Assembly (NCBI RefSeq): GCF_020177575.1
Contig: NZ_JAHTBK010000001.1
Coordinates: 248,001-312,000 of the forward strand
Source: Hasllibacter sp. MH4015
Lineage (GTDB): Bacteria > Pseudomonadota > Alphaproteobacteria > Rhodobacterales > Rhodobacteraceae
Length of the DNA: 64,000 nucleotides
Direction: 5' to 3'
The notes under the pieces were generated by a model. The model worked only from the letters and a program-made list of their open reading frames with translations, was not told where the DNA came from and made no database searches. Below, in pieces: positions 11,260-20,092 of this stretch (position 1 is its first letter; the number at the start of each line of letters is the position of its first letter). The translations under genes were made by a program, and so were the position numbers.

Positions 11260-11466
11260 ATGGCCAATGGCACCGTGAAATGGTTCAACTCTACCAAAGG
11301 CTTCGGCTTCATCGCACCCGAGACGGGCGGCAAGGACGTGTTCGTGCACATCTCGGCCGTTGAGCGTTCGGGCCTGACCGGCCTCGCCGACAACCAGAAA
11401 GTGACATACGATCTGGAAGCCGGCCGTGACGGTCGCGAAAGCGCGGTGAACCTGCAGCTCGTCTGA
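11260..11466 (+). CDS. cspA: Cold-shock protein (CspA family)
   Basis: 68 aa single cold-shock domain with RNP1 KGFGFI and RNP2 VFVHI motifs and the N-terminal GTVKWFN strand. Binds single-stranded RNA/DNA and melts RNA structure. A TTAGGAGAC ribosome site precedes ATG. The long untranslated leader and a strong terminator after the gene indicate a monocistronic unit. Confidence 0.95.
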   Translation: MANGTVKWFNSTKGFGFIAPETGGKDVFVHISAVERSGLTGLADNQKVTYDLEAGRDGRESAVNLQLV

Positions 11467-13155: not shown

Positions 13156-13359
13156 TCAATCGTCGAGGACGAATGTAACCTTCAAGGTCACGCGATACTC
13201 GTCGATCTTGCCCTTCTTGACCGTGACCTTCTGGTCCTGAACCCAGGCACCTTGCACCTTGTTGAGGGTCTTGCAGGCGCGGGCGATTCCCTTCTGGACG
13301 GCGTCGTCGAAGCTTTTGCTGGACGAGGCGATGATTTCCGTGATGCGAGCAACGCTCAT
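13156..13359 (-). CDS. Dodecin family flavin-binding protein
   Basis: 67 aa from ATG 13359, chosen because GGAGA sits about six bases upstream, whereas the ATG at 13365 would be too close. The whole length is the dodecin fold (VARITEIIASSSKSFDDAVQ, KTLNKVQGAWVQDQKV, VTLKVTFVLDD); the conserved Trp in GAWVQDQ stacks on flavin in known dodecins. Dodecamers store or sequester riboflavin/FMN. It stands alone, reading toward manC. Confidence 0.92.
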   Translation of the reverse strand: MSVARITEIIASSSKSFDDAVQKGIARACKTLNKVQGAWVQDQKVTVKKGKIDEYRVTLKVTFVLDD

Positions 13360-13593
13360 TTTCATTCTCCGATCTGGTGAATTCAGGCCCGATACGCGGG
13401 CCGAAGGGGGCCATCCTAGCACGATTGGCCATTTTGCGCCTAGCCCGGCATGCAATCGGCCAACTTCCGCCAAGCGCCTGAAATTGGGGAGGAATGTGCG
13501 TCAGCTATCGGATAGCAGGGCGCCGATATTGTGTGGCGAAACCCAGGCGAGTGATGGTGGAGCCACATTGAAACCAACCCACTGGATCACATT

Positions 13594-13701
13594 ATGACCC
13601 GCCCTGCAAAAGCGCCCAAGAAAGTCCTTCGCCCTGCATCCCCGATCCCCGGACGCCCGATGCCCGCACCGTTCAAGTTTACCGATTGGGCGGCCATCTG
13701 A
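13594..13701 (+). CDS. FTDWAAI microprotein, copy 1 (35 aa)
   Basis: ATG 13594 to TGA 13699-13701. The N-terminal part is basic and Pro-rich (TRPAKAPKKVLRPASP), ending PFKFTDWAAI exactly at the stop. A second ORF 104 bases downstream ends in the same motif, PFRFTDWAAI. Between the two copies the shared codons differ mainly at third positions (TTT/TTC, GCG/GCC, GCC/GCG) with one Lys/Arg change, which supports translation. No known family is recognised. The ribosome site is weak (GGATCAC). Confidence 0.6.
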   Translation: MTRPAKAPKKVLRPASPIPGRPMPAPFKFTDWAAI

Positions 13702-13804
13702 GTTCACGCCGATATGCGCCGGGGGGCCATGTCAAGTGGGCAGACCTGCCACAGACAGGGACGGGCCCGCGGCGTAAGTTGGGATCACGAAAGGACCCCT
13801 CACC

Positions 13805-13888
13805 ATGACTCCGCGCCACACCGTTCCGCATAAGCAACGCAAGCCCCGTCCGACCCCGTTCAGGTTCACCGATTGGGCCGCGATCTGA
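13805..13888 (+). CDS. FTDWAAI microprotein, copy 2 (27 aa)
   Basis: ATG 13805 behind AAAGGAC, TGA 13886-13888. The product starts MTPRHTVPHKQRKPRPTP and ends FRFTDWAAI: a basic, Pro-rich N-terminus and the same C-terminus as the ORF at 13594. Strongly basic with one Trp; no signal peptide or membrane helix. Likely a tandem paralogue. Possible roles include binding nucleic acid or docking to a partner through the invariant C-terminus; this is inference only. Confidence 0.6.
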   Translation: MTPRHTVPHKQRKPRPTPFRFTDWAAI

Positions 13889-13980: not shown

Positions 13981-14166
13981 TCAGAAGCGGAAAGAGACGA
14001 CGAGGGCCACGGCGATGATCATGATTGCCCAGATGCAGAAGATCATCGCGATCCGGCCGAAGAACAGCCATTCGCGCACATCCTCGTCGTCGGACACGCG
14101 CGCGACCTTGCTGTTGGCCGCCATCGCGGAAATCCGCGCCTTGATCTTCTCGTCCATATTGGCCAT
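13981..14166 (-). CDS. Small single-helix membrane protein (61 aa)
   Basis: Start at ATG 14166 because GGAGG lies six bases upstream (TTTGGAGGCTCGAAATG). A charged amphipathic N-terminus (MDEKIKARISAMAANSKVAR, then SDDEDVREW) is followed by one helix (about residues 34-58, FFGRIAMIFCIWAIMIIAVAL) and a short SFRF tail. Family unknown; the layout suggests an inner-membrane protein with a cytoplasmic N-terminal helix. Confidence 0.7.
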   Translation of the reverse strand: MANMDEKIKARISAMAANSKVARVSDDEDVREWLFFGRIAMIFCIWAIMIIAVALVVSFRF

Positions 14167-14307
14167 TTCGAGCCTCCAAACCTCTGTCATCTCAGGAATT
14201 AGGGCAAGTGACCGCCCTTTCCACGGCTGGGGATCAAGATTGTTTTGCGCAATCTGAAAATCCCACTACCCTCCATCCCGACACATCCGCATAGGAGTTC
14301 CCGAACC

Positions 14308-14853
14308 ATGCGCAAGATTACCGCGACCCTGACCACGCTGGCCACCCTTGCCGCGCTCGCGACTGCCCCCGCTGCCCACGCGCAGGACGCGCGGGAGACG
14401 GCGTTCGTGATGGGCCTGATGGAATCGATGAACCAGCTGAGCGTGCGCTTCAATCGGGAGGTCTGTGGCTTCATCTTGCAAGATGCGGAGGGCAATTATT
14501 CGTCCACCAAGGTGTCGTGGGGCGGGGAGGCCAGCTGCGCCTCCCTCCCGCTGGAGCCGGGGATGCGCGCGGTGTCATCGTGGCACACCCATGCGGCCTG
14601 GGGCCTGGGCTATGACGGGGAGGTTCCGTCGATCCAGGACGTCGAAGGCGACATGCGGTTCGGCGTGAATGGCTGGGTCGGCACGCCGGGCGGGCGGTTG
14701 TGGTTCGTGGACGGCACGACCGGGTTCATGCGCCAGGTCTGCGGACGCGATTGCCTGCCGGTGGACCCGAATTTCTTCCCCGAAGAGCACGGCCCGGTGG
14801 CCGAGACCTACACGCTTGACGGCCTGTACCAGAGATTTGGCCGGTCGCGGTAA
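14308..14853 (+). CDS. Periplasmic DUF4329/JAMM-like putative metalloprotease (181 aa)
   Basis: ATG 14308 with AGGAG 10 bases upstream; signal peptide ending AAHA-QDA. The core carries an isopeptidase-like set of residues: Glu51 (REVCGF), HTH at 93-95, then PSIQD with Ser108 and Asp111, close to the JAMM pattern E...HxH...SxxD. A Cys pair (VCGRDC) lies near the C-terminus. This is the layout of DUF4329 domains in the JAB clan. A zinc hydrolase acting in the periplasm is inferred; the substrate is unknown. Confidence 0.65.
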   Translation: MRKITATLTTLATLAALATAPAAHAQDARETAFVMGLMESMNQLSVRFNREVCGFILQDAEGNYSSTKVSWGGEASCASLPLEPGMRAVSSWHTHAAWGLGYDGEVPSIQDVEGDMRFGVNGWVGTPGGRLWFVDGTTGFMRQVCGRDCLPVDPNFFPEEHGPVAETYTLDGLYQRFGRSR

Positions 14854-15356: not shown

Positions 15357-18191
15357 CTACTCCGCCGCTTCCATGTAATCCTCCACCGGGGGGCAGGTGC
15401 AGACAAGGTTGCGGTCACCGGCGACATTGTCCACGCGATTGACCGGCGGCCAGTATTTGTCGACCCGGAATGCGCCCGGCGGGAAGCAGCCCTGTTCCCG
15501 GCTATAGGCGCGGTCCCAGGTCTTGATCAGGTCCTCCATCGTGTGGGGGGCGTGGTGCAGCGGGCTGTCCTCGGGCGGGGTGCCGGCTTCCACCTCAGCG
15601 ATCTCGGCCCGGATCGCCCGCATCGCGGTGATGAACCGGTCCAATTCTGCCTTGGTCTCGGATTCCGTGGGCTCCACCATCAGGGTGCCGGCTACGGGCC
15701 AGCTCATCGTCGGCGCGTGGAAGCCGTGGTCCATCAGGCGCTTGGCGATGTCGTCCACGGTGATCCCCGCCTCGGCGAAGGGCCGGGTGTCGAGGATGCA
15801 TTCATGGGCCACGCGCCCCGTCTTGCCCTTGAAGAGGATGCCGTAGCCGTCCGACAGCCGGGCGGCGATGTAATTGGCGTTCAGGATCGCGACCTTGGTG
15901 GCCTGGGTGATGCCCACACCGCCCATCAGATGCACGTAAGCGTAGGAGATCGGCAAGATCGAGGCAGAGCCATAGGGGGCCGCCGAAACCGGCCCCTCCG
16001 TGCCACCGGTTTCCGGGTGGCCGGGCAGGTGCGGGGCCAGATGCGCCTTCACCCCGATGGGCCCCATGCCGGGGCCGCCGCCGCCATGGGGAATGCAGAA
16101 CGTCTTGTGGAGATTCAGGTGGCTGACATCCGCCCCCAGATCGCCGGGCTTCGACAGCCCCACCATGGCGTTGAGGTTCGCGCCATCGAGATAGACCTGG
16201 CCGCCGAATTCATGGGTGATCGCGCAGACATCGCGCACCGTCTCCTCGAACACGCCATGGGTGGAGGGATAGGTGATCATGCACGCGGCCAGCTTGTCAC
16301 CCGCCGCCTCCGCCTTGGCGCGGAAATCGTCCAGGTCGATATCCCCGTTTTCCGCCGACTTCACCACGACCACCTGCATCCCCGCCATCTGGGCGGAGGC
16401 CGGATTGGTGCCGTGGGCTGAGACCGGGATGAGGCACACATTACGCTCCGCATCGCTCTGCGACCGGTGATAAGCCGCGATGGTCAGAAGCCCCGCATAT
16501 TCGCCCTGCGCGCCGGAATTAGGCTGCATGGACATGGCGTCGTAGCCGGTGATCTCGCACAGTTTGGCGGAAAGATCCTCCAGCATCTCGGCATAGCCCT
16601 CAGCCTGATCGGCGGGGGCAAAGGGGTGCAGGCCCCCGAATTCCGGCCAGGTGATCGGAATCATCTCCACCGCCGCGTTCAGCTTCATGGTGCAGGAGCC
16701 GAGCGGAATCATCGCGCGATCGAGCGCAAGGTCGCGGTCCGACAGGCGGCGCATGTAGCGCATCATCTCGGACTCGGCGCGGTTCATGTGAAAAATCGGG
16801 TGGGTCAGGTAATCGGATTGGCGCAGCAGGTCGTCGGGGATGGCGTGAGCCTTGAGCTTGGGCGCGACAAGCACCCCGAAGGCGCGGCAGACGGCCTCGA
16901 TATGTGCATCGGTCGTGACCTCGTCCACAGCAATGCCGATCCGGTCCGCGCCCACGTCACGCAAGTTGATGCCCCGGGCCACAGCGGCGGCCATGATGCG
17001 CGACTGCTTGTCCCCGACCTCCACCGTGATCGTGTCGAAGAATGTGTCGTTCAGCGGCGCGAAGCCACCGGCGCGCAAGGATGCGGCCAGCCACGCGGCG
17101 CGCGTATGGACCCGCTCCGCGATAGCGCGCAGGCCGAGGGGGCCATGGAAGACTGCGTAGAAGCTGGCCATGACGGCCAGAAGCGCCTGGGCCGTGCAGA
17201 CATTCGAGGTCGCCTTCTCGCGGCGGATATGCTGTTCCCGCGTTTGGAGCGACAGGCGGTAAGCCTTGTGCCCGTGGCTGTCGATGGACACGCCGACGAT
17301 GCGCCCGGGCAGGGACCGCTTGAGCGCATCGCGGCATGACATGAACGCGGCATGCGGCCCGCCATAGCCAAGCGGCACGCCGAAACGTTGTGCCGAACCC
17401 ACCGCTATGTCCGCCCCCATGGCACCGGGCTCCTTCAGCAAGGTAAGCGACAGGAGGTCCGTCGCCACAATGGCCAGCGCGTTGGATGTGTGCAGGGCGT
17501 CGATCTGCGCCGATGGATCGGACAGGCCACCCAGCGTGCCGGGATACTGGAAGATCGCGCCAAAGACTGCCTCCGCCTCCAGCGCGTCGAGCGCGCCGGT
17601 GATGATCTCGATCCCGAGGGGGGCCGCGCGGGTCTCGATCACGGCGATCGTCTGGGGGTGGCAGTTTTCATCCACGAAAAACGCGCGCGCCTTGGATTTG
17701 GACGCGCGCTGCGCCATCACCATCGCCTCCGCCGCCGCGGTGCCTTCATCGAGCAGCGAGGCGTTGGCGACGTCGAGCCCAGTCAGGTCCGCCACCATGG
17801 TCTGGAAGTTCAACAAGGCCTCCAGCCGACCCTGCGCGATCTCGGGCTGATAGGGGGTGTAGGCGGTGTACCAGGCCGGGTTCTCCAGCACGTTGCGCTG
17901 GATTGCGGGCGGGGTGTGGGTGTTGGAATAGCCCTGTCCGATCATCGAAATCATCGGCTTGTTCTTGGCCGCGATCGCGCGCATATGCTCCAGCAATTCC
18001 GCTTCCGACAGGGCCGGCCAATCCAGCGCGCCTGCCTGCCGGATGGAGGCGGGCACGGTGTCGTCGATCAACGCATCGAGGCTTTCGGTCCCCACCACGG
18101 CAAGCATCTCCTCCATCTCGGACGGGGACGGGCCGATATGGCGGCGATTGGCGAAATCGGTCGGGTCGTAATCGGTGGTCGTCCAGGGCAT
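15357..18191 (-). CDS. gcvP: Glycine dehydrogenase (decarboxylating), P protein of glycine cleavage
   Basis: 944 aa from ATG 18191 with AAGGAG upstream; a longer frame reaching into the intergenic repeat is not credible. Both halves of the fused P protein are present; the PLP-binding lysine is in [15 protein letters not shown] (about Lys696). Catalyses PLP-dependent glycine decarboxylation with transfer of aminomethyl to the lipoyl arm of GcvH. Third gene of gcvT-gcvH-gcvP, separated from gcvH by a hairpin repeat. Confidence 0.96.
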
Positions 18192-18217
18192 GGGGCGCTC
18201 CTTGGGACGGGCATGGG

Positions 18218-18272
18218 CCCATCTTTGCTTCAGAAATACCTCGGGGGGTTTGGGGGGCTGGCCCCCCATGGA
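18218..18272 (-). repeat. Intergenic hairpin repeat, copy 2
   Basis: On the minus strand: GGGGGGCCAGCCCCCC hairpin, AAACCCCCCGAGGTATTTCT and GAAGCAAAGATGGG, matching copy 1 at 14863-14913 with a few changes. It lies between gcvH and gcvP inside the operon, so it may attenuate or stabilise the transcript rather than simply end it. Confidence 0.8.
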
Positions 18273-19838: not shown

Positions 19839-20010
19839 GCCCCCTCTGTCCTTTGGCCTGAGATCGTTATCCCTTCGGCGGAGGGGATCGCCCCCTCACT
19901 CTCCAGAGTATATTCGCGACCGCAGGTCCTTTTGCCTGAGAGATTACCGGGGCGGTTGCTCCTTCGGCCCAGGGGTATCCGTCTGCCGGATGCCCGAGAG
20001 TCTCCCTGCG
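19839..20010 (-). promoter_or_regulatory. Tandem glycine riboswitch
   Basis: Minus-strand sequence shows two glycine aptamers in tandem. The first (about 19919-20010) runs from GCAGGGAGACTCTCGGGC through CCGAAGGAGCAA to CTCTCAGGCAAAAGGACCTG. The second (about 19839-19910) runs from CTCTGGAGAGTGAGG through CCGAAGGGATAACG to ATCTCAGGCCAAAGGACAGAG. The CCGAAGG and CTCAGGxxAAAGGAC blocks are the class signatures. Sits directly upstream of gcvT-gcvH-gcvP; in known cases glycine binding turns expression on. Confidence 0.95.
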
Positions 20011-20092
20011 ATTGCATGCGAAAGAATACATGGCTTCACACCGCGTTCAAGAGGGCTTGATAGCGATCCTGAATTGCCCCATTCCGGGGCCC

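What the first reader, a model, noticed from the sequence alone, without database searches (positions are those of the whole stretch)
13594..13888. Two tandem microproteins ending in the identical motif FTDWAAI
Seen directly: ORFs of 35 codons (13594-13701) and 27 codons (13805-13888), 104 bases apart in the same direction, both end PFxFTDWAAI-stop. Across the shared tail the DNA differs at four positions: three synonymous (TTT/TTC, GCG/GCC, GCC/GCG) and one conservative Lys/Arg. The N-termini differ in sequence but are both basic and Pro-rich. I recognise no named family. Inference: a paralogous small-protein family whose C-terminus is the functional part, for example a docking or degradation signal.
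Basis: partly seen in the sequence, partly recalled or inferred. Interest (0 to 1): 0.75.

Follow-up and report, generated by a model that had tools for sequence, protein, structure and literature searches.

The report
Disordered microproteins sharing a fixed tail
Two tiny neighbouring genes belong to an apparently unnamed family of floppy bacterial microproteins whose bodies vary freely but whose last seven residues stay nearly the same across many Rhodobacteraceae, which suggests that the tail is a plug for a shared, still unknown partner.

Summary
The two ORFs (13594-13701, 13805-13888) end FTDWAAI-stop. All 13 genus genomes have the tandem set plus a copy elsewhere, 3-4 in all, with no reversed-pattern hits. 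Tail pN/pS is 0.15 and 0.09, bodies 0.38 and 0.34: both are coding and the tail is most constrained. Across Rhodobacteraceae the tail is [F/I/Y]xD[W/Y/F]A[S/A][I/L]-COOH: 49 of 295 genera by strict pattern, 99 of 295 by the union of three searches; outside the family 1 of 380 genomes, as many as the reversed control. A tail ORF lies just upstream of TfoX_C in 62 of 122 loci (controls 1, 0, 0, 0), also in the window's genome. Bodies are Pro/Gln-rich and poor in order-promoting residues. No credible Pfam, NCBIfam, PHROG or PDB relative; six written forms of the tail occur in no paper of the library. Best reading: a C-terminal docking motif on a disordered tether, binding an unidentified hub. Family and tail selection are shown; docking is inferred. 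Arrest peptide and degron remain possible.

The parts
13594..13701 (+). Microprotein ORF1, 35 aa, body RP..SPIPG.PAP type, tail FKFTDWAAI
   Evidence: orthologue in 13 of 13 genus genomes; pN/pS body 0.38, last 9 codons 0.15
13678..13698 (+). C-terminal motif FTDWAAI of ORF1
   Evidence: family form [F/I/Y]xD[W/Y/F/L]A[S/A/M/L/Q][I/L/F]-stop
13805..13888 (+). Microprotein ORF2, 27 aa, body TPR..K.QRKPRP type, tail FRFTDWAAI
   Evidence: orthologue in 13 of 13 genus genomes; pN/pS body 0.34, last 9 codons 0.09
13865..13885 (+). C-terminal motif FTDWAAI of ORF2
13790..13795 (+). Shine-Dalgarno-like AAAGGA, 9 nt before the ATG of ORF2
   Evidence: AAGGA invariant in the 13 aligned genus loci
13446..13473 (+). 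Weak match to the repeat element (unit about YGYCAYATTTN) found upstream of many family members
   Evidence: 11.6 bits; best plus-strand match in the 64-kb window 12.4, best minus-strand match 11.7; not consistent in relatives, so only suggestive here
13505..13538 (+). Block conserved upstream of ORF1 (ctatcggatagcagggcgccgatattgtgtggcg), promoter or operator candidate
   Evidence: Aligned and mostly invariant in 13 genus loci; fold of 13505-13545 not beyond shuffles (z -0.27)
13730..13757 (+). Block between ORF1 and ORF2 (TGTCAAG...CCACAGAC), promoter or operator candidate of ORF2
   Evidence: TGTCAA invariant in 13 genus loci, the rest partly conserved; fold of 13699-13804 not beyond shuffles (z -0.87)

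Best explanation
The two genes encode members of a Rhodobacteraceae family of apparently disordered microproteins (about 25-75 aa) made of a low-complexity Pro/Gln/Ala/Lys tether and one fixed C-terminal short linear motif, [F/I/Y]-x-D-[W/Y/F]-A-[S/A]-[I/L]-COOH. SHOWN: coding, purifying selection strongest on the tail, family-wide spread, several copies per genome in this genus with different bodies and different upstream regions, a recurrent copy beside tfoX_C. INFERRED: the tail plugs as a short amphipathic turn (Phe -7, Trp -4, Ala -3 and the terminal Ile on one face, Asp -5 near its start) into a groove of a conserved cytoplasmic protein. Because the body carries no known domain, the microproteins would act by occupying, recruiting to or shielding that groove, and copies under separate promoters would let different conditions act on one hub. 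The hub is unknown; TfoX_C is unlikely to be the only one, since some genomes keep the tail without TfoX_C.
For: Tail against body selection, no homogenisation between paralogues. Strict tail in 49 of 295 genera after dropping one TGG false hit, reversed control 0; 63 of 295 raw with a wider pattern, one reversed hit; union 99 of 295. 62 of 122 tfoX_C loci have a tail ORF ending within 350 nt upstream on the same strand; controls 1, 0, 0, 0. In 221 distinct tail ORFs the last position is I 210, L 8, F 3 and position -4 is W 198, Y 14, F 7, L 2; bodies are P 18%, Q 18%, Leu 0.9%, Trp 0.3%, Cys 0.1%. In 131 diversified members 90% of body residues are disorder-promoting on average and net charge runs from -8 to +9. 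AlphaFold2 of ORF1 alone: no fold, pTM 0.15, one helical turn at residues 29-32, FTDW. 3-4 copies in each of 13 genus genomes. 8 of 49 strict-tail genomes have no TfoX_C match; 7 of these 8 are at least 95% complete, one with the same protein as Cereibacter johrii (L039 and L112), where ndk but no TfoX_C follows.
Against: No partner, no expression evidence, no structure of a complex. D at -5 and A at -3 were fixed by my search expression, so their invariance is by construction; among 60 tfoX loci without a hit only two near-misses turned up, which argues for a tight motif without proving it. Disorder rests on composition; the single-sequence AlphaFold2 model has mean pLDDT 73.8, which is not very low. 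Start codons were chosen by a heuristic capped at 110 aa, and a few frames are open much further upstream (up to 597 codons in L095). A C-terminal heptapeptide next to a stop codon would also suit a termination-stalling peptide or a degron.
Confidence: 0.55

Rival explanations
1. Translation-arrest or leader peptide: the nascent tail stalls the terminating ribosome and so controls a downstream gene (tfoX_C in many genera, perhaps the DUF4329 gene in this genus).
For: Conserved residues end exactly at the stop codon; the ORF lies upstream of a same-strand gene (tfoX_C in 62 of 122 loci; DUF4329 in 13 of 13 genus loci). In the window genome an inverted repeat GACCTC-CTTG-GAGGTC covers the tfoX ribosome site just after the microprotein stop. 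Hairpins also occur between the two genes in other loci, as an attenuator would have (by eye). Arrest with the stop codon in the A site is known for other uORFs (passages of PMC10987492).
Against: Distance to tfoX_C ranges from -10 to 202 nt with a heuristic choice of its start; the stop codon varies; an opposite-strand gene lies between the pair and DUF4329 in 8 of 13 genomes; tandem copies; tails kept without TfoX_C. Bodies avoid Leu, Trp and Cys, which a leader would not need.
Confidence: 0.15
2. C-terminal degron: the tail is read by ClpXP or another AAA+ protease, alone or with an adaptor, so that the microprotein is short-lived or carries bound cargo to the protease.
For: Free C-terminal small-small-hydrophobic ending (ASI, AAI, ASL) is of the kind ClpX tolerates (recalled, no call).
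Against: Conservation of Phe at -7, Asp at -5 and an aromatic at -4 goes beyond simple C-degrons (Asp fixed by the search). No larger protein with the strict tail was recognised in the loci read, though starts were not proven.
Confidence: 0.12
3. Dedicated partner of TfoX_C: the tail binds the neighbouring TfoX_C protein.
For: Recurrent neighbourhood in 62 of 122 tfoX_C loci against 1, 0, 0, 0 in controls, including the window's genome and 5 of 6 further genus loci checked.
Against: 8 of 49 strict-tail genomes have no TfoX_C match, 7 of them at least 95% complete; Cereibacter loci keep the tail next to ndk without TfoX_C. By eye many tfoX_C genes seem to have their own -10 element and some loci a hairpin plus T-run in between.
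Confidence: 0.12
4. Precursor of a secreted signalling peptide whose mature part is the C-terminal heptapeptide.
For: Layout (variable front, fixed C-terminus) resembles Phr or PapR precursors (recalled, no call).
Against: Bodies are poor in hydrophobic residues, so no ordinary export signal (no signal-peptide program was run); the tail is nearly the same in dozens of genera, whereas such signals diversify (recalled).
Confidence: 0.03

Closest known systems
Small alphaproteobacterial DUF1127 proteins that bind the sensor kinase PhoR (PMC12501420, title and start of abstract seen in the listing)
   Same: Proteins often shorter than 50 aa, several in one genome, acting by protein-protein contact
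   Different: No DUF1127 or other credible Pfam or NCBIfam match; here the conserved part is the last seven residues on a disordered body
Tail-docking proteins such as SSB, with a disordered linker and a conserved C-terminal tip (recalled)
   Same: Disordered linker plus conserved residues at the free carboxylate
   Different: No known folded domain, a different tip, found so far only in Rhodobacteraceae
Translation-arrest peptides (SecM, ApdP, RAPP/RQH families; PMC10987492, passages read)
   Same: Short upstream ORFs with constrained C-terminal residues, some stalling at the stop codon
   Different: No R-A-P-P-like motif and no secDF or yidC neighbour seen; composition-biased bodies poor in hydrophobic residues
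TfoX_C (PF04994) neighbourhood
   Same: About half of the tfoX_C loci examined carry a family member just upstream (62 of 122)
   Different: Not required: copies occur in other contexts and in genomes without a TfoX_C match

Membership tests
Translation-arrest peptides (RAPP-like, SecM) | RAPP/RAGP-like residues near the C-terminus | tested here: not met
   The tail is [F/I/Y]xD[W/Y/F/L]A[S/A/M/L/Q][I/L/F]-stop in 221 ORFs
Translation-arrest peptides (RAPP-like, SecM) | Sits upstream of secA, secDF or yidC and carries a localisation signal | tested here: not met
   Neighbours read are tfoX_C, ndk, DUF4329 and varied others; bodies poor in hydrophobic residues. Not every locus was annotated
Translation-arrest peptides (RAPP-like, SecM) | The nascent chain stalls the ribosome | not testable with these tools
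   Needs in vitro translation or toeprinting
Curated protein families (Pfam-A, NCBIfam, PHROGs, PDB chains) | Profile match | tested here: not met
   NCBIfam 0 of 29 members; Pfam 1 of 29 at E 0.19; PHROGs 1 of 29 at E 0.046; PDB only outer membrane protein X at E 1.5; all taken as chance
Obligate TfoX_C operon partner | Always beside tfoX_C | tested here: not met
   8 of 49 strict-tail genomes have no TfoX_C match; the window pair is far from its tfoX_C at G000:C1:1036996
ClpX C-degron | Confers ClpXP-dependent turnover | not testable with these tools
   Needs a stability assay
SSB-type tail docking | Disordered linker | tested here: inconclusive
   Composition speaks for it; AlphaFold2 gives no fold but mean pLDDT 73.8
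SSB-type tail docking | Acidic DDDIPF-like tip (recalled) binding known partners | tested here: not met
   Tip sequence differs
Phage or plasmid gene family | Present in viral or plasmid records | tested here: not met
   0 exact tail-pattern matches in viral contigs; ORF2 no phage match; ORF1 one plasmid match at E 9, in a polyketide synthase

The most novel reading that the evidence does not exclude
Rhodobacteraceae possess a shared hub protein with a groove for [F/I/Y]xD[W/Y/F]A[S/A][I/L]-COOH, and genomes deploy one to four minimal 'tether plus plug' microproteins, under separate promoters and partly under a repeat operator of response-regulator type, to switch or recruit that hub: a lineage-specific regulatory layer that annotation has missed.
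Probability: 0.35. Interest if true: 0.78.

Novelty: new variant of a known kind. Interest (0 to 1): 0.62.

Why it matters
A microprotein family in about a third of the sampled genera of a major bacterial family (99 of 295), with members in Rhodobacter and Cereibacter, has no entry in the profile libraries searched. The tail is short and well defined, so a synthetic heptapeptide and tail point mutants make the search for its partner directly testable in Rhodobacter capsulatus or a Cereibacter laboratory strain.

Tried and rejected
Nucleotide repeat or gene conversion: rejected. Phage or plasmid origin: no support. Structured RNA: at Rfam's gathering thresholds only the glycine riboswitch at 19914-20017; three folds around the ORFs not beyond shuffles. 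RpoH-type promoter: CTTG-N17-19-CATA in 12 of 197 upstream regions against a shuffle mean of 1.1 and 1 on the reverse strand; a minority, not pursued. CenR: its published TGA-N8-TGA repeat (PMC9275681; section 11 part 1 and passages read) has the same kind of spacing but other bases, so I do not assign the operator to CenR. Upstream repeat element (units of 11 bp, about YGYCAYATTTN): 110 of 202 regions above 10 bits against 18 on the reverse strand and 4 shuffled, but a model retrained on shuffles also reached 53 of 202, so part of it is fitting. CGCC-N7-CGCC occurs in 22 of 202 (shuffle mean 5.2, maximum 10; 2 on the reverse strand), three exact units in only 6 of 202. With up to 3 mismatches the consensus has 10 places in the window's genome, reversed control 1; the single perfect one lies before the tfoX-linked copy, itself a training sequence. 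Against a family-specific element: in six other genomes 7 places with one mismatch turned up and only one of them (L322) lies before a tail gene. For the window pair the element is weak. Covariation of tail and TfoX_C was not attempted; PADLOC was not searched.

Mended on checking: I gave the dodecin gene one base out of frame, so its empty result was void (one search has the same slip), and one search used the same frame for that gene; repeat the Pfam scan and the genus comparison in frame. In one search a narrow expression missed TfoX_C in two loci; one search replaces it.

Rows dropped: duplicate or dummy loci L210-L216 and L225 before the count of 122. These 122 are not a random part of the 213 TfoX_C genomes: I fetched the best-scoring listed ones and a few others. 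G065 (TGG instead of a stop) was dropped from the 50 strict genomes. From I added 13 genomes by eye to the union and left out matches ending in TGG, with Cys at -4, or otherwise doubtful; the union lists were typed by hand, and not all pattern matches in it were read as ORFs. Loci L003, L004, L021, L055, L057, L090, L113, L124 and L152 were dropped before the count of 221.

Full report
What is there. Reading the window directly, two short ORFs lie on the plus strand between a dodecin gene (13156-13359, minus; PF07311, E 2.9e-25) and a gene for a 69-aa protein with a hydrophobic end (13981-14190, minus): 13594-13701 (35 aa) and 13805-13888 (27 aa). Both end PF[K/R]FTDWAAI-stop, and the tails differ by one Lys/Arg and three synonymous changes, as reported. 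The gap is 103 bases.

Is it more than chance? In the window's genome the tail pattern with up to one mismatch occurs only at these two places. With the tail written as [FY]xDWAxI-stop, 12 of 13 genomes of the genus have 3 hits and one has 4; the reversed pattern has none. The genus looks like Roseicyclus: two titles name it, and their contig lengths equal those of G009 and G010. Each genome has the tandem set; one genome has three copies in a row. The hit elsewhere is MPTQKPTPAKGQSPTKERPVPVRFSDWASI in the window's genome. In 6 of the 7 genus loci of this kind that I checked (the window's own included) a TfoX_C gene is close by, L328 being the exception.

Selection. Over 13 genomes, pN/pS (Nei-Gojobori counts) is 0.15 for the last nine codons of ORF1 and 0.09 for those of ORF2, with pS 0.55 and 0.66. 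For the bodies it is 0.38 and 0.34. The two ORFs form separate orthologous groups by sequence, and their tails are no more alike within a genome (0.80) than between genomes (0.79), so the likeness is not gene conversion. AAGGA before ORF2 is invariant in the aligned loci. These are protein genes, and the tail is the most constrained part.

Spread. A strict pattern for [FY]xDWA[AS]I-stop matched 50 of 295 genomes of the family, one per genus, with 0 reversed-pattern hits; one match (G065) ends in TGG and is dropped, leaving 49. A wider pattern matched 63 of 295 raw with one reversed hit. In a class-wide sample of 386 genomes, the 380 outside the family gave one match, a very short frame, while the reversed control also gave one. 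Of the 80 titled rows three carry other phyla (L090, L113, L124) and look like chance; the rest carry Rhodobacteraceae names (as I know the taxonomy) or unspecific labels, among them Rhodobacter capsulatus, Cereibacter, Thioclava, Tabrizicola, Jannaschia and Roseovarius. Exact matches of that pattern in 2.9 million viral contigs: none.

The recurrent locus. In many loci the gene directly downstream is a TfoX_C protein (PF04994), followed by a convergent gene that I recognise as nucleoside diphosphate kinase. I therefore took TfoX_C as an anchor: 213 of 295 genomes have it. Of 122 such loci fetched, mostly the best-scoring ones, 62 have a tail ORF ending within 350 nt upstream on the same strand. 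The same test gives 1 hit 350-700 nt upstream, 0 and 0 on the opposite strand, and 0 downstream. Here the tail shows its tolerated variants: FKDYASI, FTDFASI, IRDFASI, ITDYASL, FADWAMI. Among the 60 loci without a hit several have another long ORF there and two are near-misses, L257 (FFDWAMI, further upstream) and L303 (FTDWAAW). By the union of the three searches 99 of 295 genera have a match. Eight of 49 strict-tail genomes lack a TfoX_C match, 7 of them at least 95% complete; 6 of the 8 tails were read as ORFs. In Cereibacter the microprotein remains beside ndk without TfoX_C (L112). TfoX_C is therefore not an obligate partner.

What the protein is like. In 221 distinct tail ORFs the bodies are 18% Pro, 18% Gln, 10% Ala, 9% Thr, with Leu 0.9%, Trp 0.3% and Cys 0.1%. 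In 131 diversified members 90% of body residues on average are disorder-promoting and net charge runs from -8 to +9. So sequence and charge of the body are free, while its disordered character is kept. The last seven positions are F 200, I 15, Y 6; a mostly polar residue; D; W 198, Y 14, F 7, L 2; A; S 126, A 86, M 6, L 2, Q 1; I 210, L 8, F 3. D and A were required by the search expression. AlphaFold2 on ORF1 alone gives no fold (pTM 0.15, mean pLDDT 73.8) and one helical turn over FTDW, which would put Phe -7, Trp -4, Ala -3 and the terminal Ile on one face; this is suggestive only. No NCBIfam match for 29 members and no credible Pfam, PHROG or PDB match. Six written forms of the tail occur in none of 5.39 million open papers. 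Broader searches gave no title on such a family in what was listed (20 of 227 papers, 9 of 9, none, 12 of 347; only listings seen).

Regulation. Upstream regions of 202 members share an element of up to three units of 11 bp, about YGYCAYATTTN: 110 of 202 above 10 bits, 18 on the reverse strand, 4 shuffled. A model refitted to shuffled sequence also reached 53, so the figure is inflated by fitting. In the window's genome the consensus has one perfect match, before the tfoX-linked copy, and nine with 2-3 mismatches. In six other genomes 7 places with one mismatch were found, only one before a tail gene, so the element is not private to this family. The spacing is that of OmpR/PhoB-type response regulators in general; CenR of Rhodobacter sphaeroides binds TGA-N8-TGA (PMC9275681), which is not the same. 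The window pair has only a weak version but has two blocks of its own aligned in 13 genomes, 13505-13538 and 13730-13757. Different copies thus seem to have different controls.

How it most likely works. A body without a known domain, free in sequence but kept disordered in character, plus a tail fixed up to the free carboxylate, repeated in several copies with different upstream regions: this is the anatomy of a docking motif on a tether. I infer that the tail fills a groove on a conserved cytoplasmic protein and that the microproteins act by occupying, recruiting to or shielding that groove. Against the arrest-peptide reading stand the biased bodies, the changing stop codon, the loose distance to tfoX_C (-10 to 202 nt), the tandem copies and an opposite-strand gene between the pair and DUF4329 in 8 of 13 genomes. 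For it stand the position at the stop codon, the upstream location, hairpins between the genes and, in the window genome, an inverted repeat over the tfoX ribosome site. The degron reading explains a small hydrophobic C-terminus but not Phe -7, Asp -5 and Trp -4. I found no bench test of any of the three in the listings named above.

Limits. Counts come from patterns that favour the motif. The TfoX_C set is a fetched, mostly best-scoring part of the 213 genomes. The family sample is one genome per genus and some are incomplete. Starts were chosen by a heuristic. No expression data were available, and the partner is unknown.

Noticed in passing
window 19914-20017, minus strand: Glycine riboswitch aptamer (RF00504, 55.2 bits), the only Rfam hit of the window at gathering thresholds; the ORF at 15357-18269 (minus) reads to me like glycine dehydrogenase (recalled, no family search).
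   Followed up: no
window 14308-14853, plus strand: DUF4329 protein (PF14220, E 1.3e-42) lies downstream of the pair, same strand, in 13 of 13 genus genomes (187-427 nt), with the opposite-strand 69-aa gene in between in 8 of 13; the dodecin gene lies upstream in 8 of 13.
   Followed up: partly
window 11260-11466, plus strand: Cold-shock gene (PF00313, E 3.6e-23) about 2.1 kb before the pair; similar ORFs lie near unlinked tail genes in some other loci (for example L064, L085, L128, L143).
   Followed up: no
loci L319, L310, L321, L324: Places resembling the repeat element lie before ORFs that read like lipoprotein, DacA-type carboxypeptidase and secreted-protein genes, hinting at an envelope regulon; too few to count.
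   Followed up: partly
loci L186, L200, L272, L274: By eye, a G+C hairpin with a short T-run lies between microprotein and tfoX_C, and many tfoX_C genes have a TAGGCT-like -10 just before the ATG.
   Followed up: no
L209, reverse strand, between microprotein stop and tfoX_C start: Inverted repeat GACCTC-CTTG-GAGGTC over the tfoX ribosome-binding site in the window's own genome, a possible sign of translational coupling.
   Followed up: partly
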